Shown here piece by piece: positions 5,369 to 63,670 of a DNA stretch of 64,000 nucleotides (its first letter is position 1; each line of letters opens with the position of its first letter). The stretch is from Buxus sempervirens (lineage: Eukaryota > Streptophyta > Magnoliopsida > Buxales > Buxaceae), in contig OX387183.1 of the NCBI GenBank assembly GCA_947561395.2, positions 35,886,853 to 35,950,852 of the forward strand, in the 5' to 3' direction. Under the pieces are notes generated by a model. That model made no database searches and had not been told where the DNA came from. It saw only the letters and a list, made by a program, of their open reading frames with translations. The translations under genes were made by a program, and so were the position numbers.

Positions 5369-7044
5369 CTAATCCCTATCTCCAAGCAGCTCCTCAAGCT
5401 TTCGAATCCGAGCCGCCTGAGCCGCAATAATTCCAGAAGCTCCCTATACATCCGGATTGCTCAAAAAGGAGATGACCTCATCTGAAAGTGCCTGCCTGAT
5501 CCTCATGCCTCTAAGGTTGGCTAAAGCATCCTGGTGCTTCTGCAGCAGCACTCGGACTTCAAAGTGGTGAGCCTGTCTCTGCTCCTCGAGTTGCTTTTCC
5601 ATAGCAATACAGCGGGATACCTGCTCTTCAAGTTGCCTCTCCAAGTCAAGGCCTCGTATCCTAAGCTCTTGGGCTTCTCGTACCCATATCTGCTGAAGTC
5701 GCATGTAAGATGCTCTTTTGGACTCCAAAATGTCTTCATAAGTGGGAGCCAAAACTGCAGGAGGATCTTCAAGTACTGGGGCCTGACTCTGAATCTACTC
5801 CTTAATCCAGAAGAGGTAGTCCTTCACATGGGGATTTGAGAAGACTGGGCCCCTCATGAAATGAACATAACACCTCCCTCATCAACAAGGCATTTAGCCT
5901 CATGGTGGTTGGTGAAAGTGGCCCAATGTAGTCCTCGTATCCACCTGGGATTATAATCCCCTGGGTTGCTCTGAACTGCCGAAGAACTTGCAAGGGGAGG
6001 TAGAGCATAGCATATCTCAAGCTCGCTAGAACCAAAAAGTTGCTGTCTCTGAAACTGATCACTGTCTCTGCATTAGGTTGATAAGTGTCAGGCCACCTCA
6101 CCTAATCATCCTGGAGTGTAGCCAAGAAAGTAAACCAACCCTGTTTGCCTCCTGGGATGTTAGGACACCCCCGGTTGTTCATCAAGACCGGAACTTTCAG
6201 GCTTGGAAAGAAATGCCGATTAATCTCTTCAATTTGACTCAGGTGGTCAAGTAACCAAAGCTACAGAAGGGGAGAAATATTTCAATGTATTGTAGAAAAA
6301 AAAATGAAAAAAGAAAAAAAAAACAGGGGAATTTTACCTGCAGGATAGGGGCACATGACAGGAAGCGCTTCTTCTTCCTGTGATAGCAGTCGGTCAATGC
6401 CTGGTACATCCCTGCCAAAATCATAGGGGCCAATCTCTCCTGCTCCCTAACCTGACAGACGACTAAGATAAGGGCCAAGTCAACTTCATCATCATCCTGC
6501 AGAAAAAGTAGTTGATTGACCACTATCAGGGTCAAGGCATTAAATCTAGCTTCCTTGTTTTCCCCCTCAAGAGCTTCTCAGTCAGAAAAGAATTGGATAA
6601 AGTCAAAAGTGGGTCAGAATCCCCTAAATCCTTCTTCCCTATACCCAGAAAAGTAGAAGCCTCTTTCTTGTAGCTAGGCTTGAGGGTTGGGTTCACTACT
6701 TTCTCTGCAAACCTCAAGCCGAGAATGGTTTCAACCTCTTCAATGGTTGAGGTCATCTCCTTGTCTCCAAATCGAAAAAGATTCAAGTCAGGTACCCAAT
6801 GACCAATCATAGCTTCAATGATTTCCCACTTGAAAGGAATCTTGGGGATAAGCAGGACGTGACCTAAATGGGTGGAATCCCATTTCATCTCTTCATCAAG
6901 GGTCATAGAACTAACCTACCTGGTGTAAAAAGAATCTACAAGGTTATACCTAGTGAGATTAGGGGGTTTTACTCTAAAAGGTTGTTTTGCAGGGGAAGCT
7001 TCACTTGCAGACAAAAATGGGGTAGAAGATGATCCGGAAGCCAT
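5369..7044 (-). pseudogene. Antisense DUF7745-like gene with C-terminal coiled coil (Tat copy 1)
   Basis: Minus-strand gene starting MASGSSSTPF at 7044. Exon 1 (7044-6338) holds a DUF7745-like block (HWVPDLNLFRFG, TIEEVETILGL). A GT-AG intron follows (donor CTGCAG/GTAAAA, acceptor CTTCTGTAG/CTTTGG). Exon 2 (6260-5369) has LWLLDHLSQIEEINRHFFPS, FLVLASLRYAMLYLPLQ and a coiled coil rich in E, Q and R, ending LEELLGDRD and TAG at 5369-5371. Breaks: an in-frame TAG about 43 codons in, a one-base shift near 6562, a TAG near 6110, a shift near 5870 and a TAG at 5444-5446. The intact second exon is seen in copy 3 at 61975-62868. Function unknown; DUF7745-like proteins are common in plant mobile elements. 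A TATA box and dyad array lie just upstream. Confidence 0.7.
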
Positions 7045-7155
7045 TGGGGATGATTGGAGCTTGCTAAGAATCAATGGGAGGAGGAAAGAGGTGAAATGGG
7101 GGGTTTTCTAAACTCAAAAAGTCGTAAAAATGATGCAAATCCCGAGGCCAATTAC

Positions 7156-7162
7156 TTTTATA
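7156..7162 (-). promoter_or_regulatory. TATA box of the antisense DUF7745-like gene
   Basis: TATAAAA on the minus strand, about 112 bp before the ATG at 7044 and 12 bp from the first unit of the dyad array. Spacing fits a TATA box and short leader. Confidence 0.55.
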
Positions 7163-7172
7163 GCATGTTTTA

Positions 7173-7320
7173 ATGTATCCTACATATTAGATCGGATACA
7201 AAAAGGTTCTGTTCATATCCGACGAAAAATGCCGGATACAAAAGAAATTGTTTGTATCCGACATTTCTTGTCGGATACAAAAAAATGCTACCTTATCCGA
7301 TCTGATATATCGGATACAAG
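7173..7320. repeat. Dyad array 1 (4 units, period 39-40 bp)
   Basis: Four palindromic units start at 7175, 7215, 7254 and 7293. Each is a 9-bp left arm like GTATCCGAC, a 7-nt centre, and a right arm like GTCGGATAC, 25 bp in all. Unit 4 has arms ATCCGAT and ATCGGAT, so both arms changed together. The array lies between the end of the PMD gene and the promoter of the DUF7745-like gene. Confidence 0.9.
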
Positions 7321-7928
7321 CAAAAAAGCAAAAAAAAAAAAAAAAAGAAAGAAGGAAGAAAAAGATCAAATTTTTTACCTGTATACATGTTATAAGCGCA
7401 GAAAAATGAAAAGGGAAAGAAGAAAAGAGAGCAAAACAAGAGAAAATATATGAAAAGTTTTTCTCATATATATACAAGTCTCGTTTGTACAAGGATGATA
7501 TAAATACATAAAAATCCTAATTTACTACTCCTCTGCAGGATCACCCCCACATCCTCTGCCACGTGCTCCTCTGCGGCCTCTACCTCGAGATGGTCAGCGC
7601 CTGAAGACATGTGTCAGAAGGCGCTCGGCAACGTAGCGTGGTCTCCGGCCCAGAAAGGACTGAATCTGGTACGTGAGGCAATAGGCCGAATTGTCAGGAT
7701 ATGGGCCCGTGGGAACAGAATCTGATGAGGAAGCCTCAGGCTCAGCAGGAGCCGACTCAATCGAAGGAATAGCCACCTCAGGCTCAACTGGGTCCTCAGC
7801 CATAGTAGTCTCAACTCCCGCAACTCCAGAAGTCTCGACAGCAGCGAAAGGAGGATCAAGAAAAGAAACAGCTGGATTAATGGAAATAAAGTCAAAAATC
7901 GTGGTACCAAAATGAACCAAAGGGATGA

Positions 7929-9142
7929 TGTAAGTGTGAAAACTCACACTCCTTATATGGCAAATGTTTGACAAATTATATCTTCTAATAATCTTCAAGA
8001 TGTGCAGAATCAAAATATAAGTTCTGTGAATTTAATAAAGAGGAAGGTAATGCTGCCACACAGCTACCACGCCGCTGGTAGCTCAAGGAAATGTAAGGTT
8101 TTCTAAATAAAGAACATTTCATAAAGGCACTTGCGAGGAACAACGCCGCTACCACTCCGCTGGCAGCGCATAAGTGAAACAATGCTTTGAAAGTAAAGAA
8201 CGTGCACTTGCGTCGTAAGGCGACGCCGACACGCTGCTGGTAGCGCAGAGCAAGATTGAAGAATCTAAAAATCAGCTGTGCACATGCCGCGTTCCCTCCC
8301 GCTAGCAGCGCGCCCTTAACTGAGTCTATTTGGATTTGAGCGGGACTTGAGTTCGCTTCCAGCCGTGTACCCCGATCACAAGGCGACGCCACCAGCGCTC
8401 GATGCGATCTGAGTTTTCTTCTTTAAATAGACGAGCTGTATTTTTTTTGGAATGACTTTTTCTTTTGATCAATTTGATTTGGATCTTGAGGTGTTCGAGA
8501 TTCAATCAATTCATCTTTAGAGAGTCGCTGATCGAGTGAGGGGGAGATCTGAGAGAGATCTCCTGGAATTGGAGTTTGAGGATTCTTCTTCATTTCGGAA
8601 CTTCACTTGATCGTATGATCTCCTGGATTGGTGATCAAGCTTAATGGATGCATAGGTGGATTCCTATTGCATTGGATCATCTCAGTGGACTCTGAGGTGA
8701 TTGTTACGATCTGGATTGATCGTGAATTGCAGCTTGTGGATTCAAGTTGTGTTGCAGTTCGTGGATTCGAGCTGTGGATCTGGATTGATCGTGAATTTCA
8801 GCTTGTGGATTCAAGTTGTGTTGCAGTTCGTGGATTCGAGCTGTGGATCTGGATTGATCGTGAATTGCAGCTTGTGGATTCAAGTTGTGTTACAGTTCAT
8901 GGATTCGAGCTGTGGATTGCTGTTGAGTGAGTTCAATTGTAAAGGTTAAGTGTGTTTTCCTTTGTAATTGTTTTTCATTCAATAGTGGAGATTCTAAGGG
9001 TTAGTCGCCTCATATAGACTCGAGGTTTTTCCTGGATCTGGATTCAGGTTTCCTCGTATAAATTCTGTGTGTATGTTTCCGCATTGTTAAGATCATAATT
9101 GTTGTAGATCGAGGACCTGTAGAGTAGTCTCCTACTCTTTCA
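7929..9142 (+). mobile_element. Copia solo LTR inserted in the antisense PMD gene
   Basis: TGTAAGTGTGAAAACTCACA to CTCCTACTCTTTCA, flanked by the duplication GATGA (7924-7928 and 9143-9147). It belongs to the same family as the LTRs at 83 and 27110 but is longer (1214 bp). It keeps the GGCGACGCCGACACGC stretch and carries three copies of a 69-bp repeat. It splits the last exon of the PMD gene. Confidence 0.93.
8708..8914 (+). repeat. 69-bp tandem repeat, three copies, in the copia LTR
   Basis: Units start at 8708, 8777 and 8846, each beginning GATCTGGATTGATCGTGAAT and nearly identical. Because 69 is a multiple of 3, all frames stay open and give artefactual repetitive peptides. Other LTRs of the family have two more widely spaced copies. 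Confidence 0.92.
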
Positions 9143-11663
9143 GATGAAACCGAAGTAAACTCACCAGGGACATTAGGAGCAGGAACAGGAGCCATCACTA
9201 GAGATGAGGTACCAACGGGATTCGCAGCAGCATCAGGAATAGGAGATGCAACCGGGTCAGGAACAACAGCCGAGATGTCCTCGGGATCAGCAGCCCGAAT
9301 CGGAGACAGGCCAGAAACAGGAGAGTCTGGCTCAACTGTGACATCATGATCAGGGACCGGATCCTGAAAAAGTCAAACAGTTCATATCAGAACAGCAGGG
9401 AAACATAGAAATGAAAAAAATGGAGTTGTAAAGAACTATAAACCTGTCATGTCCCGAGCTCGGCCTCCAAGTATGAAATCCGGTTGTCCCTCTCAGAGAT
9501 CTGGCTGTCCCTCTCTAGGATCAAAGCCTCTAGCTCTCTGATCCGTGCATCTCTCTGGGCCACGGTCGCATCATGCTCAACGATCATATCATTGACTGTG
9601 GCCCGCTGACTCCGGAACCGGTCCCAAAGAGCATTCAACTCCTTTACCTGCCAATAAGAATGGGATTCGAGTCATAAATACAAAATTGAAGGAAATGAGA
9701 TGAAAAATGCTGGCCGTAAACTTACAGTGTCATCATGGACCCGGATAAAAATCCCACCTATCTCAGTCACCCCGGCACGGATGGACCGGTCCATCAGATA
9801 GCCGATAGATACTTTCTGGATCCACTCATCGTAATCCCCAGCTACTGTAAGTGCCTCTGCATCCTCCCACTGATCAAACTGTGCAACATCGAATCCAGGC
9901 AGGAGGATGGTAGGACCAACAGGAGGTGGATGAACGGGAATGCGAGGGGCGCTAGCATGCTGAAAGTACAGGCACTCACCTAAGTACATGATCCCACCAA
10001 GTCTCCCAATGAAACACTGGTAGGAGTGGCGTCGCACATCTCGCTCGAAAGCATCCTGTACCATCTCCTAACGAGCAACCTCGTCATCCACATCCTGGAA
10101 GCGAGCCAGTATAAGCTGCAATCAAATAAAGAGTGTCAAATACAAGGGCAGTTTTGAGGAAAACAGAATATTGAAGGGTGAGGAAAATTTACATTAGAGC
10201 AGCGAGAGCGGTCTAAGTGCACCCAAGCAGATAGTGGCTGGCTCCTATCCGCGTCCCTCTCAAGAACAGACCACCGTATAGCTACGGGGAACTCTGCTGC
10301 ACTGGGCACAAGGGAAGGGCGGAATTATGTCATGTGTGTGTACATGAATATCTGGTAAGGAAAGAAAACAAGTTAGAAGAAGATAAAATAATTTTTAAAA
10401 GAAATTAAGCAAAAATATTCCTTACCTGTAAGATTTGCCAGAAAAATCGGCAGCTGATACCATCGCCTCTCGGAGCAGCCAGACCTCGAATAACTCAACT
10501 CAGTCCAGCTAATGTAGTCCCATATATCAACCGGCTCCATGCTAGCCGCCTGGTCTGCTGGAGATCTCTCAGGACATCAAAAAAGACAAGACTGACCGAT
10601 GTTGTATCCTCCTGGAAGAAGCAGCTACCAAGCATCAACAGAAAGACATGTCGGAATAGAGGGACGAAACTGTCATGATCCTCAGCAATAGTAGCATGCC
10701 TCCGGTCAAGGTGATCAATAATGTTGCTATGTAACTAGCTGATAGAGATCCGACCACTCCTGCCATCCCAAGCATCCTCAGGAAGAACCTCGTACCCTAA
10801 CAGGGTGTAAATATCCACAGCTGAAGGGCGCTCCATCTCTATAGTCCTCCCCGTCAAGGGAATGCTGGTAATCATCACAAAATCAGAGGGACAGATCCCA
10901 ATCTCTACATCTGGCAGATGAAAGGACTGAGTATCAGGGAAATACTGCTCCGTCATGGCATAAATGAGAAGACGATCGACTCGAAATGAAGGGATGAGTA
11001 GAAAATGATCGAAGCGACATCTGCGGAACTCTTGTCTGAGTCCGGGAGAAAGAGTCTGATATAGCTCACAGACCCAACTACCTTGTAGATGAGAGGGGGG
11101 ATACTGAAGAGAAACATCTGCTCGGACACACATCGAAGGATGATGATCCAACCCACTGAGAAGCTCAGTGTCCTGAACAGATGCTCGCAACTCCTCAGGG
11201 AAGACTAAACGGAACCCCCTGGCATCACCCCCAGGGGCTTGATCCTGAACTGCACCTCTGGCCCTACCACGTCCTTGGCCTCTGGCATGGCCTCTCTTAC
11301 CCTCATAAGTCTGATTCGGAACTCGGCCCCTACCTCGGCCTCGTCCTCTACCTCTAATGGCCTCCTCTGCCTAATCTCCATCTCGGCCTCAACCTCGGCC
11401 TCTCCCACGACCTCGAGCGAGAGCCACAACGGGTTAAAATTCAAAAGCATGAAATATGAAGGTTTGTGTAGAAAAAAATAGGAAGAGGGAAAAGAAAAAA
11501 TTGGGAAGCCTACCTCAGCAGAGCCCTCTCCAAAGCTTTCTCTAAAATCATCCAATGGATCAGAAAGGGTGGCACTCTGATCGGAATCAATCCTAGCAGG
11601 GGACGAAGAGGGCTGATCAGCTAGATCAGCCTCCTCTCGCACACGAGAGCGATCTCTAGCCAT

Positions 11664-12990
11664 CTACGGGAAACAGGGAGATTTTTCTGCTTAAGTTTTC
11701 TATCTAATTGGCTATCAAAAATTTTGAATGCCAAGATTGTCTAAATCCTGAATATCTCTACAAAAATTTAATCTTTCATAATTTGTTTTCAGGACTACCA
11801 AATAAGGAAAAAGGTACAAGGTGCACAAGGTGAAAAGATTAACATTGCAACAAGAATTGCATGCAATTAATCTCATAGTATCTCAGGTCACAAATCAAGA
11901 ATTGTAAGCATGCTTCAAAGACTACCGAGATGCCAAATTTGGGGTGGTCATGCGAAGTATAACATGGGATCTATAAAGCAAGGACTACCCAAGGGCACAA
12001 GACCCTAGCAGTCAAAGCACCACCTTCATCGAAGGCATGCTAAAATCAGATTGAGAAAAACAGATCATAGCGTGGTATTTGGAAATCTGAATTTTTTTCA
12101 CCACTGGCAATTCAAAAGCATTGGAAAAATGTGCAATTCAGTGGAAAAATCCGAAGTTCCCAGATACTGTCAATTTAAAGGCAATCAGTCTTAAAGGAAT
12201 TGCAGATCAGGAATTAGCAGGACAGAGTGGAAAGCCAAAGCAAATAGTAGAAAAAAAAATCCCAGCATGATATCAGCAATTCAGAGATACAAAGCATGAG
12301 AAGCATACAATCCAAAAAGCATGCAATCAGCAATTCAATGAATGCCACCGGCAGGCAATCCAAAGTTCTTGGATACTATCAATTCAAGGGTATCACCAAA
12401 GAAACAAGCCACTGTTATCAGGAATCATAGACCAGGAATTGGCAAGTCAAAGCAAATTGCAGAAAAAGAAAAAGAAAAAACAACATGGCATTAAGTCTGA
12501 AAATTCTATCATCAACAGTATGGGAAATGAAAATTTTGAGAATCATGCCATGAATAATTCATCCAAAATTATCAGTATGCAAGGATTTAATGGCAAGTGC
12601 AAAAATCTGAAAGTTTCAAATGTGTTCACTGACCCGGTTTGATGAAAGAACAGTGTGGAGTCAGGCGTCTAGTTGCAAGGGCGAATTCGAAGTAGCAAGG
12701 AGCAAGTTGCCGGAACCCAAAGACAGTCACTGTAGCCTGCACGATGGCGTCGGATGGGGGAGTTGTCGCTAAAGTTGAAGAGAACAAGGGATTAAACAGA
12801 ATCCGAAAATGGGCTAGGGCTTGGCAATAAGCAAATGTCGGAATCAAAGGAGGTTGCCGGAGTTTGCAAGAAGTCACCGGAAATTGCTGGAAAAGAAGGG
12901 GAGGAGTGTTCGTCGTCGGAGAAGAAGAAGATGTGTCCGCCCTTGTTAATCGGAGAAGAAGAAAAAGAAGTGAGGGTCGTGGTCTTACGC
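11664..12990 (-). other. Putative leader and first intron of the antisense PMD gene
   Basis: Upstream of the ATG at 11663 the minus strand shows an acceptor-like TTTCCCGTAG directly before ATGGC. Further up, at about 12640-12985, is a CT-rich stretch with many TTCTTCTTC and CTCCGG motifs, like a plant 5' leader, just downstream of the TATA box at 12996. The part between (11680-12640) is AT-rich with repeated GCAATTCA-like words and no coding signal. The arrangement suggests a leader exon and a large 5' UTR intron; the donor was not fixed. Confidence 0.45.
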
Positions 12991-12995
12991 GACTG

Positions 12996-13001
12996 TATAT
13001 A
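12996..13001 (-). promoter_or_regulatory. TATA box of the antisense PMD gene
   Basis: GGTTATATACAG on the minus strand, immediately downstream of dyad array 2. The same TATA-like word follows the array in copy 2 near 18656. Confidence 0.5.
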
Positions 13002-13008
13002 ACCTATT

Positions 13009-13072
13009 GTATCCGACGAATCATGTCAGATACAAATAAAAGTGTTGATATCTGACCAAATGCGTCGGATAC
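13009..13072. repeat. Dyad array 2 (2 units, period 39 bp)
   Basis: Units at 13009 (GTATCCGAC to GTCAGATAC) and 13048 (ATATCTGAC to GTCGGATAC), each 25 bp. Lies directly upstream, in minus-strand sense, of the TATA box at 12996. Confidence 0.88.
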
Positions 13073-13076
13073 AAAA

Positions 13077-13202
13077 GAAAGCAGAAAAAAAGAGAAAAAA
13101 GAGAAAAAGGAAAAGAAAAAGAGATAAAAAAGAAAAAGAGAAAAATAAAAGGAGGGAAAGAAAAAAAAAGAGAGAAAAGAAAAAATGGAAAAAGAAAAAA
13201 AA
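13077..13202 (+). repeat. Homopurine (A/G) tract
   Basis: About 125 bases almost entirely A and G. Equivalent tracts lie at 18735-18822 in copy 2 and at about 62900-63010 in copy 3. Lysine-rich open frames across it are artefacts. Confidence 0.85.
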
Positions 13203-13491
13203 TGTGTTGGTCAAAAAGGGAAATATTCAGTCAGTTTCTTTAAACATGGTTTGCTGCAAAATCTATTATTTTCAAAAAAATCCTATTTTTGGGCTTAAAA
13301 TCCACTTCATAGCCACAAGAGCTCAGTGGAATTTAAGACAACTTGGAGAAATGCCCCCTTTAAGTTAGGGCTTTTTGGCAAATCTTCACCCAAAATTATT
13401 TTACAAAGTTAAATTGAACCAAGCAAATCATGGTTAAGGAAGCACAATTTGGGTTTGTCTAATCTTTGCAGCTCATTGCTTTGCAATTCCC

Positions 13492-13506
13492 GCAAAGAGG
13501 GACAGT
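13492..13506 (+). promoter_or_regulatory. Polypurine tract of Tat copy 1
   Basis: GCAAAGAGGGACAG directly precedes the 3' LTR start TGTAGACACC. The same tract stands before the LTRs at 19125 and 63427. It would prime plus-strand DNA synthesis. Confidence 0.8.
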
Positions 13507-13617
13507 TGTAGACACCCCAAATTGCGCTAAGAAAATAATGAATAATTGGCCAAAACAGTAAAAAACAATTTGTTTTCTTGTAACCAACACTGAATTTCGG
13601 TTGAAGCACTCTTCCTT

Positions 13618-13759
13618 GTATCCGACAGAAGTCATCGGATACAAGCAAGTGTTTTTATATCCAACAGAAGTCATCGGATACAAGAAAGTATTATTGTATC
13701 CGACGACATTTGTCGGATATAAATATGTTCCCTTATATCCGACCTGAGTTGTTGGATAC
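13618..13759. repeat. Dyad array 3 in the LTR of copy 1 (4 units, period 39 bp)
   Basis: Units start at 13618, 13657, 13696 and 13735, exactly 39 bp apart. The third is nearly perfect: GTATCCGAC, 7-nt centre, GTCGGATAT. The array is 167 bp upstream of the LTR TATA box. Confidence 0.92.
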
Positions 13760-13925
13760 AAGGATTTTGCTCAAAATTAGGGTTTCCCCAAAGTTTTCAC
13801 TTTTTATTGTCTTATCCCTTATTTAAGAAGCGGAAATCTTGGAAATAACCTAAGGGTTAAGTGGGAGAATGCTAGACACTTCCTTGTGTCTACCATTAGG
13901 GTTCCCCTTAACCCTAGCCTTTGCT

Positions 13926-13933
13926 TATAAATA
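13926..13933 (+). promoter_or_regulatory. TATA box of the Tat LTR, copy 1
   Basis: TATAAATA followed by GGAGGCC, conserved at the same place in the LTRs of copy 2 (19508) and copy 3 (63837). Presumed promoter of the sense transcript. Confidence 0.7.
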
Positions 13934-14104
13934 GGAGGCCCCTACTCAAGCAAATGGCTATAAGTTGGAGATTGAAGAGCTCCAAGTGAAGAAGGGAACC
14001 GCTGCTGCATTGCTCCCAGAAACCCAGGTAAGCCTGGAACTTCTTTATTTTTCTGTTTTTACATTCTAGGGTTAGATCTTTCTTCTACCTTTCTGTAGAA
14101 TAAT

Positions 14105-14371
14105 GGCCTACTCTTTGTGCTTGAAACCCCTTTCCCTACTCAAAGTACCTCGAGACTCCCTCTAGCCGTAAAACGTGAAGGGGGATCTAGGGGAAACGAG
14201 ATTGGGAATTGATCCTTAGTCATAGAACCCTCTTGAATGGCCTATTGTTGTGTGAAAACCCCTTCTATACTCAAAGTACCTCAAGACTATCTCGAAACCG
14301 TAAAACGTGGAGAGATAACTAGGGAAAACGAGAATGGGGATGGAACCCTAGACATAGAACCCCCTTTGATT
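14105..14371 (+). repeat. 134-bp imperfect tandem duplication in the Tat LTR
   Basis: Two units, both GGCCTA..., TACTCAAAGTACCTC..., CCGTAAAACGTG..., CATAGAACCC. The same duplication is in copy 2 (units at 19688 and 19821), so it is a feature of the family. Confidence 0.8.
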
Positions 14372-15901
14372 AATGTGCTATATGTTGTGATGATTGAAGA
14401 GATGACTTTTTGCACATGCACACATCGCACTCGTTTTGTCGGAATCGGCTTGTATTTTGGATCTATCGTATTCATTGTGATAGATATGAAATAAATGGCC
14501 CCAAGCATTTCTGGGACATTTCTTAATGATTTTCAAGCAAGTTTATCTTTGATTATTGAAGACCTCATGGTCTAACCTCTCGGTTTTGGGCATCTTTGCT
14601 CCATTTTACGGTTTTTGGCATATTCTCTCCAATCGAAGAGAATGGTGAGCCAAAGTCATGCCCTATTTCCTCTTGGAGGTTTTTCAATACTTTTTCAAAT
14701 GATTTTGGTTTGGATTGCACGGATTACACACACTTGATCACTGTTTTGGGTTGATTTTACTTAAAAATGGCAAAACTTGACAACATCTGTACCCTAACTT
14801 CGGACACTCATAACTTCATCATCCAGATGAATTTTGGAGTGATTCCAAAAACATGTAAAAGATGAGACTGTCTAGTTCATGTCTGTAAAATTTCAGCCAT
14901 TTTTATCGAGCGGATTTTTGACACCATTCGATCAAAGTCGACAAGTCAGTTCAGGCCAGATTTCTGAACTTGTCACTTTGAATGAGCACCATCTGCTCGA
15001 TTTAAGTTCGATTTGAGTGATTTTGGTTTCTGTGTTTTCCTTTGGGAGTCTACTTTCAAATTCAATTGGTTTCACAATTTTTTTGATTTCATTTGTGTCT
15101 TGTGTGACTGATTTACTCAGAACTGCCCCATAGCATAATTCTGTGCTGATCTGTGATCCTCTCGGCATGTTCGTGAGGTCACACAAGTCACATCCAAATG
15201 GAGTTTGGTGTGAGGCCTATTTCATTTGAAAGATGCACTACATACTTCATTCATGCAAATTTTCACGGATTTATATGGAGCCAATCTCCCCAAATGAATT
15301 TCCAAAGTTGCCCACTGATTACTTTTATTGATTTACAACAGCAGATTTCAAATGAGCATAACTCTTAGGGTTTTAACCGGATTTAATTGAAAATTTTCCT
15401 GAGTCTTCTATTTATCATAATCTTTCAAATGGATTTGGTTTGATTTAATTTGAATTTGATTTGAATGATTTATGGTCAAATGGCTCCATCTTTTACCAAA
15501 CTTTCTGGATTTGTCTTAACTTGTTTGTGTTCAAGTTTTGCTTTGATTTCTATTTAATAGTGATGTCCTAGAAGTGATACTTACATAAAAGAGGATCTGG
15601 AATTCATTGGACTTCTCATTTGGAGATATCATACATGTGTTTGAATCTTTTTAAGCTTTTTGATTATTTTAATTAGCAAGCCTTCTTTATTTTGAACATG
15701 AACAATACTTGGCAACCACCTTGTATGGGTGAACAGGGGTGCCTAACACCTTCCCCCGTTCATAATCTAATCCCCTTACCCATCTCTAGATTTTATTTTC
15801 AAGTAGAGTTATTTTACTCTAGAATAGTGGCGACTCTCCCATTTTATGAATCCCGTGTGATGACCGGAAAGCCACTGGATTGATTTTTCCCATGTCTCAC
15901 A

Positions 15902-18655: not shown

Positions 18656-18663
18656 TAAATATA
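18656..18663 (-). promoter_or_regulatory. TATA box of the copy 2 antisense PMD gene
   Basis: GGTTATATTTAG on the minus strand, 8 bp from dyad array 4, at the same position as in copy 1. Confidence 0.5.
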
Positions 18664-18670
18664 ACCTAGT

Positions 18671-18734
18671 GTATCCGACAAATCATGTCGGATACAAATA
18701 GAGGTTTTGATATCTGACTAAATACGTTGGATAC
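18671..18734. repeat. Dyad array 4 (2 units, period 39 bp)
   Basis: Units at 18671 (GTATCCGAC to GTCGGATAC, a perfect dyad) and 18710 (ATATCTGAC to GTTGGATAC). Equivalent to array 2. Confidence 0.9.
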
Positions 18735-19199
18735 AAAAGAAAAACAGAAAAAAAGAGAAAAAAGAAAAAGAGAAAAAAAAAAAAAAGAAAAAAAAGGGAG
18801 AAAAGAAAAGAAAAAAGAAAAAATGTGTGTTGGTCAAAAAGGAAATATTCAGTCAAATTTTTAACATGGCTTGCTGCAAAATCAATTATTTTCAAAAGTC
18901 CTATTTTTGGGCTTAAAATCCACTTCATAGCCACGAGAGCTCAGTGGAATTTAAGACAGCTTGGAGAAATGCCCCCTTAAAGTTAGGGCTTTTTGGAAAA
19001 ACTCCACCCAAAATTATTTTGCAAAATTAAATTGAACCAAGCAAATCATGGTTAAGGAAGCACAATTTGGGTTTGTCTAATCTTTGCAGTTCATTGCTCT
19101 GCAATTCCCACAAAGAGGGGCAGCTATAGACACCCCAAATTGGGCTGAGAAAAAGATGAATAAATTGGCCAAAATCATCAAAAAATAGCTTGCCTTTTT

Positions 19200-19341
19200 G
19201 TAGCCGATACAAAACGTCGGATAAAAGGTTTTTGTTTTGTATCCGACAAAATCCATCGGATACAATAATTTTGTATTGTATCCGACGAATTCTATTGGAT
19301 ACAAGGATTATTACTTGTATCCGACCTGAGTTGTCGGATAC
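19200..19341. repeat. Dyad array 5 in the LTR of copy 2 (4 units, period 39 bp)
   Basis: Units at 19200 (degenerate), 19239, 19278 and 19317, each 39 bp apart. The last is a perfect GTATCCGAC / GTCGGATAC dyad. Confidence 0.9.
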
Positions 19342-19507
19342 AAGTATTTTGCTCAAAATTGAGGAATTCTGAAAGTTTTCACTTTTTACTGTCTTATCCT
19401 TGTTCTAAGGGTGGGAATTCCCAGAAATAACCTTAGGGTTTAAGTTGGTGGATTCTAGACATCATTTTGTGTTTAGCATTAGGGCACCACTTACCCTAGC
19501 CATTGCC

Positions 19508-19515
19508 TATAAATA
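19508..19515 (+). promoter_or_regulatory. TATA box of the Tat LTR, copy 2
   Basis: TATAAATA followed by AGAGGCC, aligned with the TATA box at 13926. Confidence 0.65.
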
Positions 19516-21565
19516 AGAGGCCTCTCCTCAAGCAAATGGCCAAGAGTTGGAGATTGAAGAGCTCCAAGTGAAGAAGGGAACCTCTGCCCCATTGCTTCCA
19601 GAACCCAGGTAAGCCCTAACCCTATTTCAATTTTCTGTTTTTAAATTCTAGGGTTAGTTCTCTTCTTCTATCTTTCTGTAGAATAATGGCCTACTGTTTG
19701 TGCTTGAAACCCCTCTCCCTACTCAAAGTACCTCGAGACTCTCTCTAGCCGTAAAACGTGAAGAGAGATCTAGGGGAAACGAGAATGGGAGTTGACCTTA
19801 GTCATAGAACCCTCTTGAATGGCCTATGATTGTGTGAAACCCCATTCCCTACTCAAAGTACCCCAAGATTATTTCTAGCCGAAAAAGGCGAAGAGAGAAC
19901 TAAGGGAAACAAGAATGGGAATGGAACCCTAGAAATAGAACCCCATTTGATTAATGTACTTTTAATGCTATATTTTGTGATGTATTGATTTAAAGAGATG
20001 ATTTTTACATATGCACACATCGCACTTGTTTTTTTTTTTGAATCGGCTTGTATTTTGGATCTATCGTATTCATTGTGATAGATCTGAAATAAATGGCGCC
20101 AAGCATTTCTGAGACATTTCTTAATGATTTTTAAAAGGATACAAGCAAGTTTATCTTTGCGTATTGAAGACCTCATGGTCTAATTTTTCTGTTTTGGGCA
20201 TTTTTGCTCCGTTTTGGGGGTTTTGGTATATTCTCTCCAATCGAAGAGAATGGTGAGCCAAATTCGTGCCCTAATTCCTCTTGGAGGTTTTTCAATACTT
20301 TTTCAAATGATTTTTGGTTTGGATTGCATGGATTACACACACTTGATCACTGTTTTGGGTTGATTTTACTTAAAAATGTCAAAACTGGACAGCATCTGTA
20401 CCCTAACTTCGGACACTCATAACTTCATCATCCGGATGAATTTTGGAGTGATTCTAAAGACATGTGAAAGATGAGACTGTCTATTTCTTGTCTGTAAAAT
20501 TTCAGCCATTTTTATGGAGTGGATTTTTTACACCATTCGATCAAAGTCGACAGGTCAGTTCAGGCCAGATTGCTGAACCTGTCACTTTGAATGAGCACCA
20601 TCTGCTCGTTTTAAGTCCGATTTGAGTGGTTTTGGTTTTTGTGTTTTCCTTTGTGAGTCTACTTTCAAATTCAGTTGGTTTCAAAAATTTTTGCTTTTAT
20701 TTGTGTCGTGGGTAACTGATTTACTCAGGACTGCTCAATAGCACAATTCTGGGCTAATCTGTGATCTTCGGGGCCTGTTCAGGAGGCCACCCAAGGCACA
20801 TCCGGATGAAGTTTTGTATGGGGCTAGTTTCCTTTGAAATATGACACTACATACTTCATTCATGTAAATTTTCAAGGATTTATATGGAGCCAATCTACCC
20901 AAATGGATTTCCAAAGTTGCCCACTTGTTACTTTTATCGATTTACAACAACAAATTTCAAATGAGCATAAATCTTAGGGTTTTAATCAGATCTACTTGAA
21001 AATTTTTGTGAGTCTTTTATTTATCATAATCTTTCAAATGGATTTGGTTTGATTCAATTTAAATTTGATTTGGATGATTTAAAGACAAATGGCTCCATCT
21101 TTTACTGAATTTTCCGGATTTGTCTGAACTTGGTTGTGTTCAAGTTTTGCTTTGATTTCCATTCAATAGTGATGTCCCAGAGGTGATACTTCCATAAAAG
21201 AAAGTCTAAAATTCATTGGACTTCTCATGTGGAGGGATCATACATGTTTTTAATCCTTTTCAAGCCTTTTTGATTATTTTAATTAGCAAGCTTTCTTTAT
21301 TTTGAGCATGAACAACACTTGGCAACCACCTTGTGTGGGTGAATGGGGGCACCTAACACCTTCCCCCGTTAATAATCTAATCCCCTTACCCATCTCTGGA
21401 TTTTTTATTTTAAAGTGGAATTCTTTTTTATCTAGTTTTGCATTTTGCTTGTTTTGATGATTTTGGTGTTCATTCACACCTAAAAAGAATGGTGGCAACT
21501 CTCCCATTTTATGAATCCCGTGTGATGATAGGAAAGTCACTGGATTGATTTTTCTATGTCTCACA

Positions 21566-28146: not shown

Positions 28147-28148
28147 AG

Positions 28149-54805: not shown

Positions 54806-57428
54806 AGCCCAGCCAGCCCAGCAGTTGTACCAGACCTCGCACAATGTCAATTTCTCTCCCTCCGTACCTGCAAATCAGAGGAGGGCCTTTACCAAGGAAG
54901 AGAAGGATGCCTGGATGGCAACAAGGAGGAACAGAGGTTTTACTCCCCTTCCTGAGTCTCTTTCCCAACTGTTACCAACCCTGCTAAAAGGGGAGTATGT
55001 GACCCTGAAAGAGCCCAACCCAAATGCCTTGAAGGGGAGGAATTTTGATCCAGCCATCACTTTTGACTATCACATGGGTGCACCGGGGCACTCTACTGAC
55101 ACTTGCTGGATGCTAAAGCATGCAGTCCAGGACCTGTTGGACCAGAAGGCCCTGGTTTTTAATAATGCTGCGCCCGCCCCGTCGAGAAATGACATCGGGC
55201 AGAACCCTCTGCCTTACCACAATGGGGTAGGCCCGTCCAACTCTATCACTACCATATCTACCAGGAGAAGTGCCTTTGACCCATCTCAGCTTATAGCTCC
55301 CATAGGGACCTCGGTCAAGGTCCATTTTTTCCAAGGGGAAGAAGAGGAGGAGGTCAATATGGTCTCCCGGAAAAATGATAATACTGGTGAGGACATTAGC
55401 TCCTCTCTGAACCGGGTCTCCTCTCTTATGGCCCAAATAAATATTGCAAGGCCTCCTCTGGTCTTCAATTGCAGTCCACCCACTTGTTCACCATCCAAGA
55501 CATCAAAAGCTCCACTAGTCATCAACCTTGACCCTACCACCGCATCCATCACCTCTTCAGTTCCCTCAGCCACATCTGGGTCCAAACTCCAACCCATGGT
55601 TGTAAACATTCCAGCTTCCTACAGTATCCCTAAACCGGCCCATACATCCCGGTCCAAACTCCAGCAGTTGGTGGTCAATGTCCCTAGACTAGCCTACTCT
55701 GAGGCAGCTATACCATGGAATTACAGCGAGGGGGTCACGGCTACAATTCAAGTTGTCAGGAACCAGAACCAGGAGGAGGTGAACCTCATGACGAGGTCGG
55801 GAAAATGTGTGGAAGGAGTAGAGAAAGAAAAAGTGACAGAGGTGGAGAGAGAGAGAGAGAAAAGAAACAGAACAAAAAAGAAAGTTGAAGGGAAAAACAA
55901 AAGTGGGATAAGACACCCCCAGGGTGTAGAAAATGAGGCAGCAGACCTCATAAAAATAATAAAAAAAAATGAATTCAATCTTGTGGATCAGCTGAACAAG
56001 GTCCCAGCCCAGATTTCAATTCTGGGCCTTTTGCTAAATTCTGAAAAGCACAAGGACGCATTGTTAAGGGTGCTACAGAGTGCACATGTATCCCAGACCA
56101 TTGATCCAGACCAACTAGGCAAAATGGTTGGTCAAATCTTGTCACATAATGTGATAAGTTTCTCCGAAAGTGAGATAAGCCTAGGTGGGTGTTATCATGT
56201 TGACCCTTTGCACATCACAGTGCTTTGTAAGGGCAGTATGATCGCGCGGGTATTAATTGACAACGGGTCGGCGTTAAACGTTTGCCCGTTAATCACTTTT
56301 GTCAAGCTTGGTCTGAATCAGTCAAAGATCAAGCAGAATGGGAGGATAGTGAGAGCTTTTGACAGCTCTAAGACACACTCCCTAGGGGAGATTGAACTGC
56401 CGGTCACAATTGGACCGAATATCTTCAACATCACATTTGAGGTGATGGATATACCCGCAGCCTTCAATCTGCTCCTAGGGAGGTCGTGGATACACTCGGC
56501 TAGGGCAATACCATCCACGCTCCACCAAAGGGTGAAATACATAAGAGGGCAAAGGGTGATAACAGTCCTATCTGAGAATTTGGTGCCTCCCATTGTGTCA
56601 CCTGATGTACCCTTGATAAATGTGGACTTAACTGTCGACAAGATTGCGTTTCACTCATTTCAGCTTGAGACGGTTAATTTTATACCTAGGGGTTGTGAGA
56701 AAAAAGAAAAAAAACATACTACTGCTGAGAAAATGGTAAGGAAAGTGATGGAGAAATACCACTTTCATCCGGGGAAAGGCCTGGGAATAAATTTGCAGGG
56801 AAGGGTGGAGCCAATCAGGGCTAAGAAACTGGTTCCTAAAGTGGGATTGGGATTTAAACCCAGAGGATGGAGGAGAATGAAACACGAAGAAGGAGAGAAA
56901 AGAAGCAAAGGAAAAATCCCTCATTTAAGGGAGAATTTTCCAAAACCCTCTTGCATCATCCAACTGTCTCCCCCCATGGATCAATCCAAACCTCCGTACC
57001 GAAATGTCAATCTATACCAAAAGCCTTCTGTTCCGACCCTGCAGCCATACAACCCATCTCCTATGCTTGGAACATTGGGCGGGCCTGGGCCACAGCCCGA
57101 GCAGCAGGTGGATTTCTCCAAAGATGTCGATGCATTCTTCACCATGACTGAAGGCAAAAAGACAGTTGGTGACAAGGAGCTGCCTTTTATTGATTGGGCA
57201 GCAGTGAAAATTCTAGATGAGGTCATATCTGGACTGGGCCCCGTAGCAGAAAAGGGCAGTACCCACCCGGTGATGATGGCATCGGATTCTGGGCTTGAGG
57301 AGCAGGCTTGCACAATTTCCCCTACTCCTGAAAATTTTACATTGAACAATTGGGAGGAAACTCCCCTTACCTTTGAAGCAGCGTTTGTTTGGCAAACTGA
57401 CGCGGCTTCCAAAAAAAAACTCCAATAG
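54806..57428 (+). CDS. Tat gag (3' part) and aspartic protease, with G-patch
   Basis: Open from the truncation point to TAG at 57426-57428, about 870 codons without a start. The gag end has RRAFTKEEKDAWMATRRNRG and YHMGAPGHSTDTCWMLKHAVQDL, a remnant of a zinc-knuckle-like C-H-C pattern. A low-complexity, Pro/Ser/Thr-rich part follows. The protease is at about 56255-56560 with LIDNGSALNVCPL, an Asp-Asn-Gly-Ser variant of the Asp-Thr/Ser-Gly motif, and FNLLLGRSWIHSA. A G-patch-like segment (FHPGKGLGINLQGRVEPI, KVGLGFKPRG) lies at about 56760-56870. The frame ends KKKLQ after an A9 run (57411-57419); pol continues in the -1 frame from that run. Confidence 0.82.
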
Positions 57429-60400
57429 TGGAATGCCATTTCCCTGGAGGTTCTAATGAGCCTTCATCTTCAGGGGAATTATATTTAGAAGGCTCACAAA
57501 AAAACCAAAAAGATTTTTCTATTTTTACTAGAAAACTTAATTTTTTCAAAAAGATCCAAACCACTTATGAACCATATAATCAAACCGAATTGGACCAGGT
57601 TGAATATGACTTCGACTTTGAGCTTGACTTTGATCTCATGGGGATCGAAGAAGAGACCGAAGTCGAAGAAGAAGACGTTCCAAAAGAAATTGAATATCGA
57701 TTGGAACGTCATGAAAAGGGGGTCCAACCTAATATTGAGGAGACCATTTCAATAAATCTTGGGACCGAAGATGACCCAAAAATAGTGAAAATCGGGGCAT
57801 GTCTATCTAATGTGCAGCGTGGTGAAATGACACAGTTTTTGGCAGATTATAAGGATGTGTTTGCTTGGTCCTATCGGGACATACCAGGGTTGGACACTGA
57901 CATGGTGGTGCACAAGTTGCCAATTTTGCCAGGGGTTAAGCCAATCAAGCAGAAACTGAGAAGATTGAAACCTGAATGGACTCTGAAGGTCAAGGACGAA
58001 GTGGTCAACCAATTTCAAGCCGGATTTTTGGCAGTCTCCACATACCCCGAGTGGCTTGCAAACATAGTGCCAGTACCAAAGAAGGACGGGAAAGTCAGAA
58101 TGTGCGTGGACTACAGAGATCTGAATAAGGCAAGCCCAAAGGATGATTTTCCACTTCCACACATCGACATTTTGGTCGATAATATTGCGGTACATAGCCT
58201 ATTTTCATTCATGGACGGTTTCTCGGGATATAATCAGATCAAAATGGCTAAGGAAGATCAAGAGAAAACAATGTTTATCACACCTTGGGGCACCTTCCAC
58301 TATACAGTCATGCCATTTTGGCTTAAAAACGCTGGGGCAACATACCAGCGGGCCATGACCGCACTATTCCATGATATGATCCATAAGGAGATGGAGGTCT
58401 ACATGGACGATATGATTGCCAGATCATGCAAAGAAGAGGACCACTTGATCAATCTGAAGAAAGTGTTTGATCGACTCAGAAAGTACAGTCTACGGCTTAA
58501 CCCGGCTAAATGCGTCTTTGGGGCTACATCAGGGAAGTTGCTAGGATTAATAGTGAGCAGAAGAGGAATTGAAATTGACCCAGCTAAAGCCAAGGCCATT
58601 ATTGAAATGCCATCACCCAGAACAAAGAAGGAGGTTAGGGGCTTTCTTGGAAGACTTCAATATATAAGCCGGTTCATAGCACAACTCACTGCTATCTGTG
58701 AACCAATTTTCAAGCTTCTAAGGAAAGATAACCCGACGGTCTGAAATGAGGATTGCCAGCAGGCATTTGACACAATAAAGAAGTATTTGTTGAACCCACC
58801 TGTGCTAGTGCCACCAACTCCAGGAAGACCACTGATCCTGTACTTGTCAGTGTTGGAAACATCAATGGGATGAGTCTTGGGGCAGCATGATGAAACTCGT
58901 AGAAAGGAAAGGGCAATTTACTATCTGAGTAAAAAATTCACAGAATATGAAGCCAAGTACTCACCATTGGAAAAAACCTATTGTGCTCTAGTGTGGGCAA
59001 CTCAGAGGCTAAGGCATTACTTCCTTAGTCACTCCACATTATTGATATCCCGGATGGACCCTTTGAAGTATTTATTTGAGAAACCAGCACTAACTGGGAG
59101 GACGGCAAAGTGGCAGTTGTTACTTTCCGAATTTGACCTCACATACATCACTCAGAAAGCGATTAAGGGTCAAGCCATTGCTGATCACCTGGTTGCACAT
59201 CCTTTGCCAGAATACCAACCGTTGAAGACCAACTTTCCTGATGAGGCAATTCTGTTTACTGAAGAAGAGGAAAGTGAAAGTTCTTGGCAGATGTTCTTTG
59301 ATGGGGCCGCCAATATGAATGGAAATGGAATAGGGGCAGTCTTGGTCAAACCAGACGGTTCACACATCCCGATTGCAGTGAAGTTGAAATTCCAGTGCAC
59401 CAATAATATTGCAGAATATGAAGCATGTATAATTGGGTTACAAGCCACCATAGATCATGAAGTGGAGGAACTTGACGTATACGGAGATTCGAGTCTTATC
59501 ATCTTCCAAACAACTGGTGAATTGGAAAACCAAGAGTCACAAATTGATCCCCTATCACCAGTATTTGGAAGAAATAAGCACAAATTTTACTCGAATTTCC
59601 TTTAACTATATGCTAAGGGCCAAAAATCAGTTCGCGGACGTTCTAGCAACATTGGCTTCCATGGTCAGCATGCCAGAAGGGGTAGACATCAAACCACTGG
59701 AAATCGAGGTCAGAGATGAACCAGCTTATTGTCTTGTTCTAGAGGGAACACCAGAAAAAGAAGCACCATGGTTTCAAGACATCAAAAATTTCTTGAACAA
59801 TCGGAGTTTGCCAGAAAGTGCCACGTCTACTGAGAAAAGAACAATACAGAGATTAGCTGGTCAGTTCCTACTAAGTGGTGGACACTTGTACAAGAGATCA
59901 CATAATGATATTCTGCTCAGGTGTGTTGCTAAGGCTGAGTCAGAAAGGTTAATCGAGACTGTACATGGAGGAGTATGTGGACCCCATATGAATGGACACA
60001 TGCTTGCAAAGAAGATCCTGCGGTTGGGATATTACTGGTCGACGATGGAACATGATTGCTGTATACATGTCAGGAGGTGTCACCAATGTCAGATATATGC
60101 AGATAACAAGCATGCACCCCCAAGTGAGTTGCACAACATGACATCCCCATGGCCCTTTTCCATGTGGGGCATAGATGTCATTGGCATTATTTCACCTAAG
60201 GCATAGAACGGACACAGATTCATTTTGGTGGCAATTGATTATTTCACCAAGTGGGTAGAAGCAGCCTCATATGCGAATATCACAAGCAACCATGTTATTA
60301 AATTTTTGAAACACAACATTATTTGTCGCTATGGACTACCAAGTGCCATAGTATCAGACAACGCTTCAAATATTAAGAACAATGACATGAAGAAGATGTG

Positions 60401-61016
60401 TGAGCAGTTTCAGATTACCCATCACAAGTCCGCTCCATACAGGCCAAAGATGAATGGGGCAGTAGAAGCGGCAAATAAGAATATAAAGAAAATCATTCAG
60501 AAAATGGTAGTGAGTTACAAGGATTGGCATGAAATGCTACCGCTTGCTTTACATGCCTACAGAACCTCAATCCAGACTTCAACTGGGGCAACCCTGTATT
60601 CCCTAGTCTATGGGATGGAAGCAGTTCTGCCAGTGGAAGTAGAAATCCCATCACTCAGAGTACTCATGGAGGCTGAATTAGAAGAAGCTGAATAGATACT
60701 GTCAAGAAATGATCAACTCAACCTGATAGAAGAGAAGTGATTGAAAGCACTATGTCATGGCCAATTGTACAAAAGGAGAATGGCCCAGGCCTACAATAAG
60801 AAGGTGAAGCCCAGAACTTTCCAAGAAGGAAACTTGGTGCTAAAGAAAATCTTACCATTTTTGGAAGATCCTCGTGGTAAGTTCAAGCCGAATTGGGAGG
60901 GGCCATATGTCGTCAAAAAGGTCCTGTCAGGGGGAGCACTCATCTTGACAGAAATGGACAGGACAGACTTTCCTGAGCCAATTAACTCTGATGCGGTAAA
61001 AAGGTATTTTCCTTGA
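57419..61016 (+). pseudogene. Tat pol: RT, RNase H, archaeal-type RNase H, integrase
   Basis: Lies in the -1 frame relative to gag-protease, starting at the A9 run. An acidic linker is followed by RT (PVPKKDGKVRMCVDYRDLN, FMDGFSGYNQIKMA, EVYMDDMIARS at about 58394-58426). The gypsy RNase H (YLSKKFTEYEAKYSPLEKTY) is followed by a second RNase H (MFFDGAANMNGNGIGAVLV, NIAEYEACIIGLQ, DVYGDSSLII), which assigns the element to the Tat clade. Integrase has the H2C2 finger (HGGVCGPHMNGHM..., CHQCQ) and acidic triad (LVAIDYFTKWVEA, AIVSDNASN, NGAVEAANKN). It ends DAVKRYFP. Damage: TGA 58742 and 58871, a one-base indel near 59520, TAG 60204 and 60693, TGA 60738. All catalytic motifs are still readable. 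Confidence 0.9.
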
Positions 61017-63426: not shown

Positions 63427-63528
63427 TGTAGATACCCCAAATTGCACAGTAAAAATGAAGAATAATTGGCAAAAATCATTATCTCCTCTGAAACCAGCAC
63501 AAAATTTGAGAAAACAAGCTTTTTCCTT

Positions 63529-63670
63529 GTATCCGACAACTCAGGTCGGATACAAGCATATCCCTTTGTATCCAACATAAGTTGTCGGATACAAGCAGAC
63601 CTTAATGTATCCGGCAACATATGCCGGATACGTATAGGCGCTTGTGTATCTGACCTGACATGTCGGATAC
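63529..63670. repeat. Dyad array 6 in the LTR of copy 3 (4 units, period 39 bp)
   Basis: Units at 63529, 63568, 63607 and 63646, exactly 39 bp apart. Unit 3 has arms GTATCCGGC and GCCGGATAC: both arms carry the matching change, so the dyad stays perfect. Confidence 0.92.

What the first reader, a model, noticed from the sequence alone, without database searches (positions are those of the whole stretch)
7173..13761. Tandem 25-bp dyads with a 39-bp period: an unrecognised regulatory repeat of Tat elements
Twenty units in six arrays (7173-7320, 13009-13072, 13618-13759, 18671-18734, 19200-19341, 63529-63670) share one design: 9-bp arm GTATCCGAC, 7-nt centre, inverted arm GTCGGATAC, about 14-bp linker. 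Unit starts are 39 bp apart almost everywhere (one gap is 40). The centres and linkers vary while arms, centre length and period hold. That points to selection on the dyad and its helical spacing (close to four helical turns) or on an RNA stem-loop array. I know of no named plant element with this design.
Basis: partly seen in the sequence, partly recalled or inferred. Interest (0 to 1): 0.9.

Follow-up and report, generated by a model that had tools for sequence, protein, structure and literature searches.

The report
Promoter dyad arrays shared by retrotransposons
Short mirror-image DNA motifs, repeated every 39 letters, sit beside the promoters of a plant's jumping genes, both the main promoter and the backward promoter of a helper gene, and look like a shared switch for turning those elements on or off.

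Summary
All 20 dyads are present. The window's own genome (676 Mb) holds 39,032 matches with up to 3 mismatches, against 120 for the reversed pattern. The arrays are promoter-linked. One set lies in the U3 of Tat-type LTRs; in the window's three LTRs it ends exactly 165 bp before the sense TATA box. A second set lies inside the element, 6-11 bp upstream of an antisense TATA-like box. That box precedes a gene for a plant-mobile-domain (PMD/DUF7745) protein. Nine aligned copies, eight of them picked for a TATA, share this layout and its ATG. Six of six regions not picked for a TATA hold the internal array, with a clear TATA in one, weaker ones in four, none in one. A second family carries arrays 10-12 bp from TATA. 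Arms are conserved while linkers drift. Helical phasing fails; RNA stems are weakly supported. Best explanation: sites for a dimeric DNA-binding factor shared by LTR and antisense accessory-gene promoters (0.7). The binder is unknown; the element's own PMD protein is an untested candidate. New variant of a known kind.

The parts
7175..7317 (.). internal array of element Ea, 4 dyads, just upstream of the antisense promoter
   Evidence: aligned with 8 further copies
7155..7163 (-). antisense TATA box CTATAAAAG, 11 bp from the array
   Evidence: P 0.004 for a random flank; matrix recalled
7042..7044 (-). predicted start codon of the antisense PMD/DUF7745 gene (CCCCAATGGCT)
   Evidence: an ATG stands at the aligned place in nine of nine copies
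5447..7044 (-). broken antisense accessory gene of Ea (DUF7745/PMD matches in pieces 6242-6577 and 6535-6915)
   Evidence: codon-position bias
13009..13072 (.). internal array of Eb, 2 dyads
12994..13002 (-). antisense TATA-like TTATATACA, 6 bp from the array
   Evidence: P 0.028
10738..11370 (-). antisense ORF of Eb, weak PMD match (below cut-off)
   Evidence: third-codon-position excess against Ec
13507..15827 (+). LTR (TGTAGACACCCC start; end inferred from PBS-like TGGCGACTCTCCC at 15828)
13618..13759 (.). U3 array, 4 dyads (decayed further unit at 13580)
13926..13933 (+). sense TATA box of the LTR; the 9-mer TTATAAATA begins 165 bp after the array
18671..18734 (.). internal array of Ec, 2 dyads
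18656..18664 (-). antisense TATA-like TTATATTTA, 6 bp from the array
   Evidence: P 0.067, weak
19125..21492 (+). LTR of Ec (end inferred from PBS-like motif at 21493)
19200..19341 (.). U3 array, 4 dyads; in the alignment one whole unit is absent relative to Eb and E3
19508..19515 (+). sense TATA box, same 165-bp spacing
63427..64000 (+). 3' LTR of E3, runs past the window
63529..63670 (.). U3 array, 4 dyads
63837..63844 (+). sense TATA box, same 165-bp spacing
61975..62889 (-). antisense ORF of E3 (304 aa, C-terminal part; no stretch aligning with Ea's gene start, promoter and array)
57401..60695 (+). E3 pol: RT, RNase H, second RNase H (RVT_3), integrase (Tat marker)

Best explanation
The arrays are promoter-proximal clusters of binding sites for a dimeric, sequence-specific DNA-binding factor. 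The same site cluster is used at two opposed promoters of one Tat-type LTR retrotransposon: the LTR promoter that makes gag-pol RNA (array ends 165 bp before TATA) and an internal promoter, pointing the other way, that drives an antisense accessory gene for a PMD/DUF7745 protein (array ends 6-11 bp before a TATA-like box). A second family uses it 10-12 bp before its TATA box. So expression of the accessory gene and of the genomic RNA is probably co-regulated. Shown here: position, spacing, conservation, the antisense gene and its codon-position bias. Inferred: that these are working promoters, that a protein binds, that it is a dimer. Not known: whether it activates, represses or protects from silencing, and who binds.
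For: U3 arrays: TATA 165 bp away in 3 of 3 window LTRs; among 83 arrays 39 have a TATA (score 7 or more) at 150-190 bp, 36 of these at 164-166. Internal arrays: eight copies picked for a TATA plus the window copy share four dyads, a TATAAAA box, leader and an ATG at the same place. One (L092) is open for 260 codons from that ATG with DUF7745 E 8.9e-17 and PMD E 2.3e-11, both over cut-off. Not picked for TATA: six of six stretches upstream of 3' LTRs hold an internal array at the predicted place (L102 and L103 are near duplicates); read by eye, one has a clear TATA (L099), three CTATAT (L101, L102, L103), one a weak TTTATAA (L100), one none (L098). Arrays without an LTR TATA: 22 of 46 have an outward TATA at 10-12 bp and one more at 49; inward control 5 of 46. 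Arms against centres plus linkers: 43/54 v 19/49 invariant; units 1-3 arms 11.6%, linkers 30.4% divergent. Antisense ORFs: third-position excess (E3/Ea 0.208 v 0.124 and 0.077; Eb/Ec 0.511 v 0.211 and 0.200; 0.173 v 0.096 and 0.070).
Against: No expression or binding data. The TATA matrix is recalled, not taken from a call. Genome-wide TATAAA 6-16 bp after a perfect dyad occurs 276 times, but the inward control TTTATA occurs 297 times; in the capped list of controls most rows look like a linker running into the next unit (ATATCC..), yet the raw counts do not differ. Arms are only marginally better conserved than the U3 between array and TATA (43/54 v 108/164, P 0.063). Eb and Ec TATA boxes are weak; the L100 type scored only 2.1 where the same sequence was scored in L026, and L098 has none. 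E3 has no internal array. Half of the arrays without an LTR TATA (23 of 46) show no strong outward TATA. The fetched loci were chosen for a perfect dyad in the first 36 Mb of one contig, or for a TATA box, which inflates arm conservation there.
Confidence: 0.7

Rival explanations
1. RNA structure. The array acts in RNA, either as tandem stem-loops or as one long hairpin in which unit 1 pairs with 4 and 2 with 3, for example as packaging, export or small-RNA source in the 3' end of the genomic RNA or in an antisense RNA.
For: Very stable folds, z -7.9 to -12.9 in five of five; nested partners have complementary centres (35 of 56 v 21.2; mean matches 3.83 and 4.55 of 7 for 1-4 and 2-3 against 2.2-3.3 for other pairs in 29 arrays); natural centres fold better than letter-shuffled ones in Ea and E3 (fraction as good 0.000-0.005), borderline in Eb (0.085, 0.050); covariation score reached by 8 of 500 shuffles for the nested fold and 12 of 500 for single units, 26 of 500 for the adjacent-pair control; coupled changes at the two innermost arm pairs, 37 v 10.8 and 21 v 5.5 expected, and small excesses at outer pairs (6 v 3.0; 1, 2 and 2 v 0.0-0.2).
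Against: No compensation at two mid-arm pairs (1 v 1.7, 1 v 2.3); sense A.C 61 v G.T 27, though this would favour an antisense RNA; Ec gains nothing on the sense strand (0.855) and little on the other (0.050); the 1-4 complementarity is as high between arrays (4.2) as within (3.83), so it is inherited, not array-specific; two-unit internal arrays lack nested centre pairing (3/7 and 2/7); any palindrome folds well; the fixed distance to TATA is unexplained.
Confidence: 0.15
2. Neutral tandem repeat kept alike by slippage, unit exchange and hairpin-templated correction during reverse transcription, without function.
For: One whole-unit difference (Ec); the centre of 63529 is the exact reverse complement of those of 13735 and 19317; coupled symmetric changes near the centre; Tat elements are known for tandem repeats near the 3' LTR (PMC11963269, passages and part 1 of section 11 read).
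Against: Correction or duplication would carry linkers along, yet linkers drift while arms stay; array-TATA distances are narrow at two kinds of promoter and in a second family.
Confidence: 0.1
3. Sites for a host transcription factor that several element families use, the antisense protein not being involved. This is one form of the best explanation and its odds overlap with it.
For: The same dyad occurs in a second family with another array layout. Core TATCC/GGATA recalls SHAQKYF-type MYB sites and CCGAC-N7-GTCGG recalls everted auxin-response-factor sites (both recalled, not tested).
Against: An 11-bp arm with a 7-bp centre is longer than usual plant factor sites (recalled). No motif library was at hand to test it.
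Confidence: 0.4

Closest known systems
Grande gene23 and other antisense accessory ORFs of plant Tat/Retand elements (PMC7264820, passages; PMC11963269, passages and part 1 of section 11)
   Same: antisense gene between pol and 3' LTR; for Grande a promoter upstream of gene23 and a nuclear product are reported; tandem repeats nearby in about half of Retand elements
   Different: here the product is PMD/DUF7745, not TRP28; the parts read describe no dyad array and no sharing of one array between antisense and LTR promoters
VANDAL transposons with VANC anti-silencing proteins (PMC5735166; abstract and passages)
   Same: short motif repeated in tandem in non-coding parts of the element, with an element-borne accessory gene
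   Different: the VANC21 motif has nine bases and the text has no use of 'palindrom'; binding is proven there, not here; no VANC relative found here
Foamy virus LTR plus internal promoter, both activated by Tas (PMC8670036, PMC4929722; start of abstracts in the search listing only)
   Same: two promoters of one retroelement, one of them internal, with a proposed common regulator
   Different: the internal promoter here points antisense; whether the accessory protein binds is untested; no homology is implied
PMD proteins MAIN and MAIL1 (PMC7156037; passages)
   Same: PMD family; needed for expression of genes carrying a promoter motif (DOWN motif) and for TE silencing
   Different: host genes; the DOWN motif was found by enrichment; the terms 'bind DNA' and 'DNA binding' do not occur in the main text

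Membership tests
Ty3/gypsy Tat clade | second, archaeal-type RNase H between RNase H and integrase (definition recalled) | tested here: met
   RVT_3 after RT_RNaseH and before Integrase_H2C2/rve in E3; best NCBIfam matches are haloarchaeal and other RNase HI models, far below their cut-offs
Ty3/gypsy Tat clade | long pol-3'LTR region with antisense ORF | tested here: met
   61975-62889 minus strand, codon bias in that frame
Retand lineage (as in PMC11963269) | antisense TRP28 domain PF04195 (97% of clusters) | tested here: not met
   no PF04195 in Pfam scans of the antisense pieces given; these copies are broken, L092 was read for 260 aa only; DUF7745/PMD found instead
Retand lineage (as in PMC11963269) | LTR of 315-1,194 bp | tested here: not met
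   LTRs about 2.3 kb, 13507-15827 and 19125-21492, ends inferred
VANC-like anti-silencing system | tandem target motifs in non-coding parts | tested here: met
   (repeats outside the ORFs seen; that they are targets is not tested)
VANC-like anti-silencing system | element-encoded VANC protein | tested here: not met
   antisense protein of L092 matches PMD/DUF7745 only; no direct search with a VANC sequence was made
VANC-like anti-silencing system | protein binds the motif and removes methylation | not testable with these tools
   no binding or methylation data
conserved RNA stem-loop | compensatory changes along the stem | tested here: inconclusive
   clear at two inner pairs, slight at outer pairs, absent at two mid-arm pairs; no Rfam family reaches its gathering score in the window

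The most novel reading that the evidence does not exclude
The antisense PMD protein itself is the factor: a retrotransposon-encoded dimer that binds dyad arrays in its own promoter and in the LTR, forming an autoregulatory or anti-silencing circuit. Tens of thousands of sites, and a second element family, would then answer to one TE-encoded regulator across the genome.
Probability: 0.25. Interest if true: 0.88.

Novelty: new variant of a known kind. Interest (0 to 1): 0.62.

Why it matters
The function of antisense accessory genes in plant Tat elements is open, and the origin and function of their tandem repeats are called unknown in PMC11963269. Here one defined 25-bp site links the two, at both promoters of the same element, so the question becomes a simple binding and reporter test. 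If the accessory protein binds, it would be a plant retrotransposon counterpart of viral transactivators or VANC proteins, and PMD host proteins would gain a DNA-target model. If a host factor binds, the roughly 39,000 sites are a large reservoir of ready-made promoter elements.

Tried and rejected
Helical phasing: 39 bp is 3.71 turns; rejected. Rfam: no family at gathering score in the window; weak miRNA-family and other matches in 13000-13800 are far below gathering scores, read as generic hairpin signal. Other collections: five stretches each in viral contigs and genome contigs. The five viral loci show one dyad each and no tandem array; those were not inspected further. P0001 found no relatives at E 0.001, no useful PDB match, and its model is too poor to use (mean pLDDT 45.7); no fold search was made. 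Adjacent-unit pairing was a control for nested pairing. A paper search for the literal arm sequence gave 302 papers; the titles of the 30 listed look unrelated. A search for 39-bp repeats with LTR and promoter terms gave 2 papers, unrelated by title and abstract start. I saw no paper describing this dyad in the listings; that is not proof of absence.

The genome-wide TATAAA count (276) was meant as a clean test, but its inward control gave 297, in the capped list mostly where a linker ending in TTT meets a unit starting ATATCC; I therefore rest the claim. Four questions to the genome did not complete: copies of window 7030-7330, dyads 17-27 bp before TATAAA, dyads about 165 bp before TATAAATA, and an unbiased search with the antisense protein.
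Full report
Observation. The window holds 20 dyads with arms GTATCCGAC/GTCGGATAC and a 7-nt centre in six arrays, none expected by chance. Spacing is 39 bp with one 40. The arm is effectively 11 bp, TTGTATCCGAC; TATC and GATA within it are invariant but for one base in 20 units, while its outermost and innermost bases vary. Linkers and centres differ widely between units, with a small residual likeness (centres 0.37-0.38 identity against 0.29-0.30 shuffled; linkers 0.45-0.54 against 0.31-0.32).

What carries them. The window is a nest of plant LTR retrotransposons. E3 (ORFs 54738-60695) has RT, RNase H, a second RNase H and integrase in the Tat order. LTRs start at 13507, 19125 and 63427, each preceded by a purine-rich tract; PBS-like TGGCGACTCTCCC or its variant stands at 15828 and 21493. 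Eb and Ec are stretches of 3.2-3.7 kb between LTRs; no gag-pol domain was found in the ORFs scanned there, and an antisense gene is kept. Three arrays lie in U3. Three lie inside the element, between the antisense gene and an A-rich tract before the 3' LTR.

Two promoters. In all three window LTRs the U3 array ends exactly 165 bp before the sense TATA 9-mer. On the other strand each internal array is followed at 6-11 bp by a TATA-like box: CTATAAAAG in Ea (P 0.004 for a random flank), TTATATACA in Eb (0.028), TTATATTTA in Ec (0.067) (matrix recalled; Eb and Ec are related). A pyrimidine run of 16-19 nt follows within 120 nt in all three (each found in 4-6% of random minus-strand windows). In Ea an ATG (CCCCAATGGCT) opens a frame with DUF7745 and PMD matches in the next pieces. 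These antisense frames carry the mark of purifying selection: substitutions by codon position are 0.124, 0.077, 0.208 for E3 against Ea, and 0.211, 0.200, 0.511 for Eb against Ec (for Eb/Ec the true frame is the row shifted by 2).

Whole genome. Once the genome search answered, the dyad proved abundant: 39,032 matches with up to 3 mismatches, 120 for the reversed pattern. I fetched stretches around places in the printed, capped list (all perfect dyads on the first 36 Mb of contig C1): 20 of 7 kb and 48 of 1 kb. With the window these give 83 arrays and 303 units; 184 of 220 spacings are 39 bp. Thirty-nine arrays have a TATA (score 7 or more) at 150-190 bp, 36 of them at 164-166. Of the 46 arrays without such a TATA at 160-170 bp, 23 have a strong outward TATA within 60 bp, 22 of these at 10-12 bp; inward-pointing control 5 of 46. 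Most of the 22 belong to a second family, X, with layout two units, a step of about 104 bp, two or three units, about 10 bp, TATAAAA; 17 of 25 family X arrays have the TATA at 9-13 bp. L071 and L072, 15.4 kb apart, are 96.4% identical over 1,001 bp, so these may be LTRs of X; that is not settled.

The antisense promoter in other copies. A genome search for perfect dyads 6-16 bp before TATAAA gave 134 + 142 places. The inward control gave 156 + 141, in the listed rows mostly the start of the next unit, so raw counts decide nothing. Eight places resembling Ea were fetched. All eight have four dyads at 39 bp, a C/T-TATAAAA box, the same leader and an ATG at the place of Ea's. L092 is open for 260 codons with DUF7745 E 8.9e-17 and PMD E 2.3e-11; it ends in a T-rich stretch that may be an intron. 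The other four new copies translated, and Ea, show stops within the printed 230 residues; three (L089, L091, L094) were not translated because the exact start string was absent. Against L092, codon positions diverge 0.096, 0.070, 0.173. Leaving out the unit on which copies were selected, arms of units 1-3 diverge 0.116, centres 0.156, linkers 0.304; invariant columns are 34/54 for arms and 16/42 for linkers, P 0.023.

A test not conditioned on TATA. Six stretches just upstream of 3' LTRs were chosen because their 1-kb neighbours matched that region. All six hold a two- to four-unit array in the predicted place; L102 and L103 are near duplicates. Read by eye in the antisense direction, L099 shows CTATAAATG at about 10 bp and an ATG; L101, L102 and L103 show CTATAT at about 6 bp; L100 shows TTTTTATAA; L098 has no clear TATA. 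L026 and L031, fetched earlier, show TTTTTATAA (score 2.1) and TTATATGTA (score 5.2).

Selection on the dyad. In the window's LTRs, units 2-4, invariant columns are arms 43/54, centres 11/21, linkers 8/28, flank to TATA 108/164: arms against centres plus linkers P 4e-5, arms against flank P 0.063, centres plus linkers against flank P 9e-4. In 29 distinct four-unit U3 arrays, pairwise identity is arms 0.883, centres 0.655, linkers 0.595, next 30 bp 0.795; most of these were fetched for a perfect dyad, which favours arms.

DNA or RNA. The five arrays or strands folded are all very stable as RNA, as any palindrome would be. In 340 distinct units two mid-arm pairs show no compensation (1 v 1.7 and 1 v 2.3 expected), the two innermost pairs do (37 v 10.8; 21 v 5.5), and outer pairs show small excesses (6 v 3.0; 1, 2, 2 v 0.0-0.2); shared ancestry, symmetric dimer sites or hairpin-templated repair could also give this. 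In sense orientation A.C breaks outnumber G.T wobbles 61 to 27, which speaks against a sense RNA and would favour an antisense one. Units of a four-unit array tend to be arranged so that 1 mirrors 4 and 2 mirrors 3 in their centres; the 1-4 match is as high between arrays as within, so it is an inherited layout. Natural centres help folding in Ea and E3, hardly in Eb, not in Ec's sense strand. I read this symmetry as that of a DNA site cluster or a trace of origin by inverted copying, and keep an RNA hairpin as a rival.

Mechanism. A dimeric factor would read two inverted half-sites; several dimers 39 bp apart would form a cluster upstream of TATA. The same cluster at the LTR and at the antisense promoter would tie the helper gene to genomic RNA production. 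Whether this activates, represses or protects from silencing is not shown. The antisense protein, with a PMD/DUF7745 N-terminal part and a C-terminal part that looks like coiled coil by eye (weak sub-cut-off coiled-coil matches; model too poor to use), is a candidate dimer.

Relation to what is known. Grande's antisense gene23 is reported to have a promoter upstream of it and a nuclear product (PMC7264820, passages). Retand elements have antisense TRP28 genes and tandem repeats of unknown function (PMC11963269, part 1 of section 11 and passages). VANC21 binds a tandem 9-base motif (PMC5735166, passages). Foamy viruses drive LTR and internal promoter with Tas (PMC8670036, PMC4929722, abstract starts in the listing). 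The sharing of one dyad array between an LTR promoter and an antisense accessory-gene promoter was not described in what I read.

Noticed in passing
9854-21564: Tandem stretches between shared LTRs with no gag-pol domain found but an antisense PMD-type gene with strong third-codon-position bias: perhaps a non-autonomous form that retains the accessory gene.
   Followed up: partly
27109-37123: Copia-type element with 99% identical LTRs and an extra sense ORF (34384-35769) matching Transposase_32 PF20167 after pol.
   Followed up: no
45794-45855 and 46014-46421: The window holds part of family X: 148-bp tandem repeats whose relatives lie upstream of the dyad arrays in family X loci; a stretch with period AATCCGATATTTTGGATTT lies near where an array could be expected and may be a decayed one.
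   Followed up: partly
54738-57428: 896-aa ORF before RT with a G-patch domain.
   Followed up: no
42433-42975 and 37103-37741: ORFs with a FAR1 DNA-binding domain and a BED zinc finger, perhaps from DNA transposons.
   Followed up: no
4847-5242, minus strand: RNase H-like RVT_3 ORF in the antisense region of Ea, largely in a stretch (4576-5206) that has no counterpart in E3.
   Followed up: no
63529, 13735, 19317, and L089-L096: Outer units of four-unit arrays often have mutually reverse-complementary centres (AACTCAG/CTGAGTT; ATATCAG/CTGATAT). The TATA-proximal unit has a centre beginning CTGA in 26 of 29 U3 arrays and 7 of 9 Ea-type internal arrays.
   Followed up: partly
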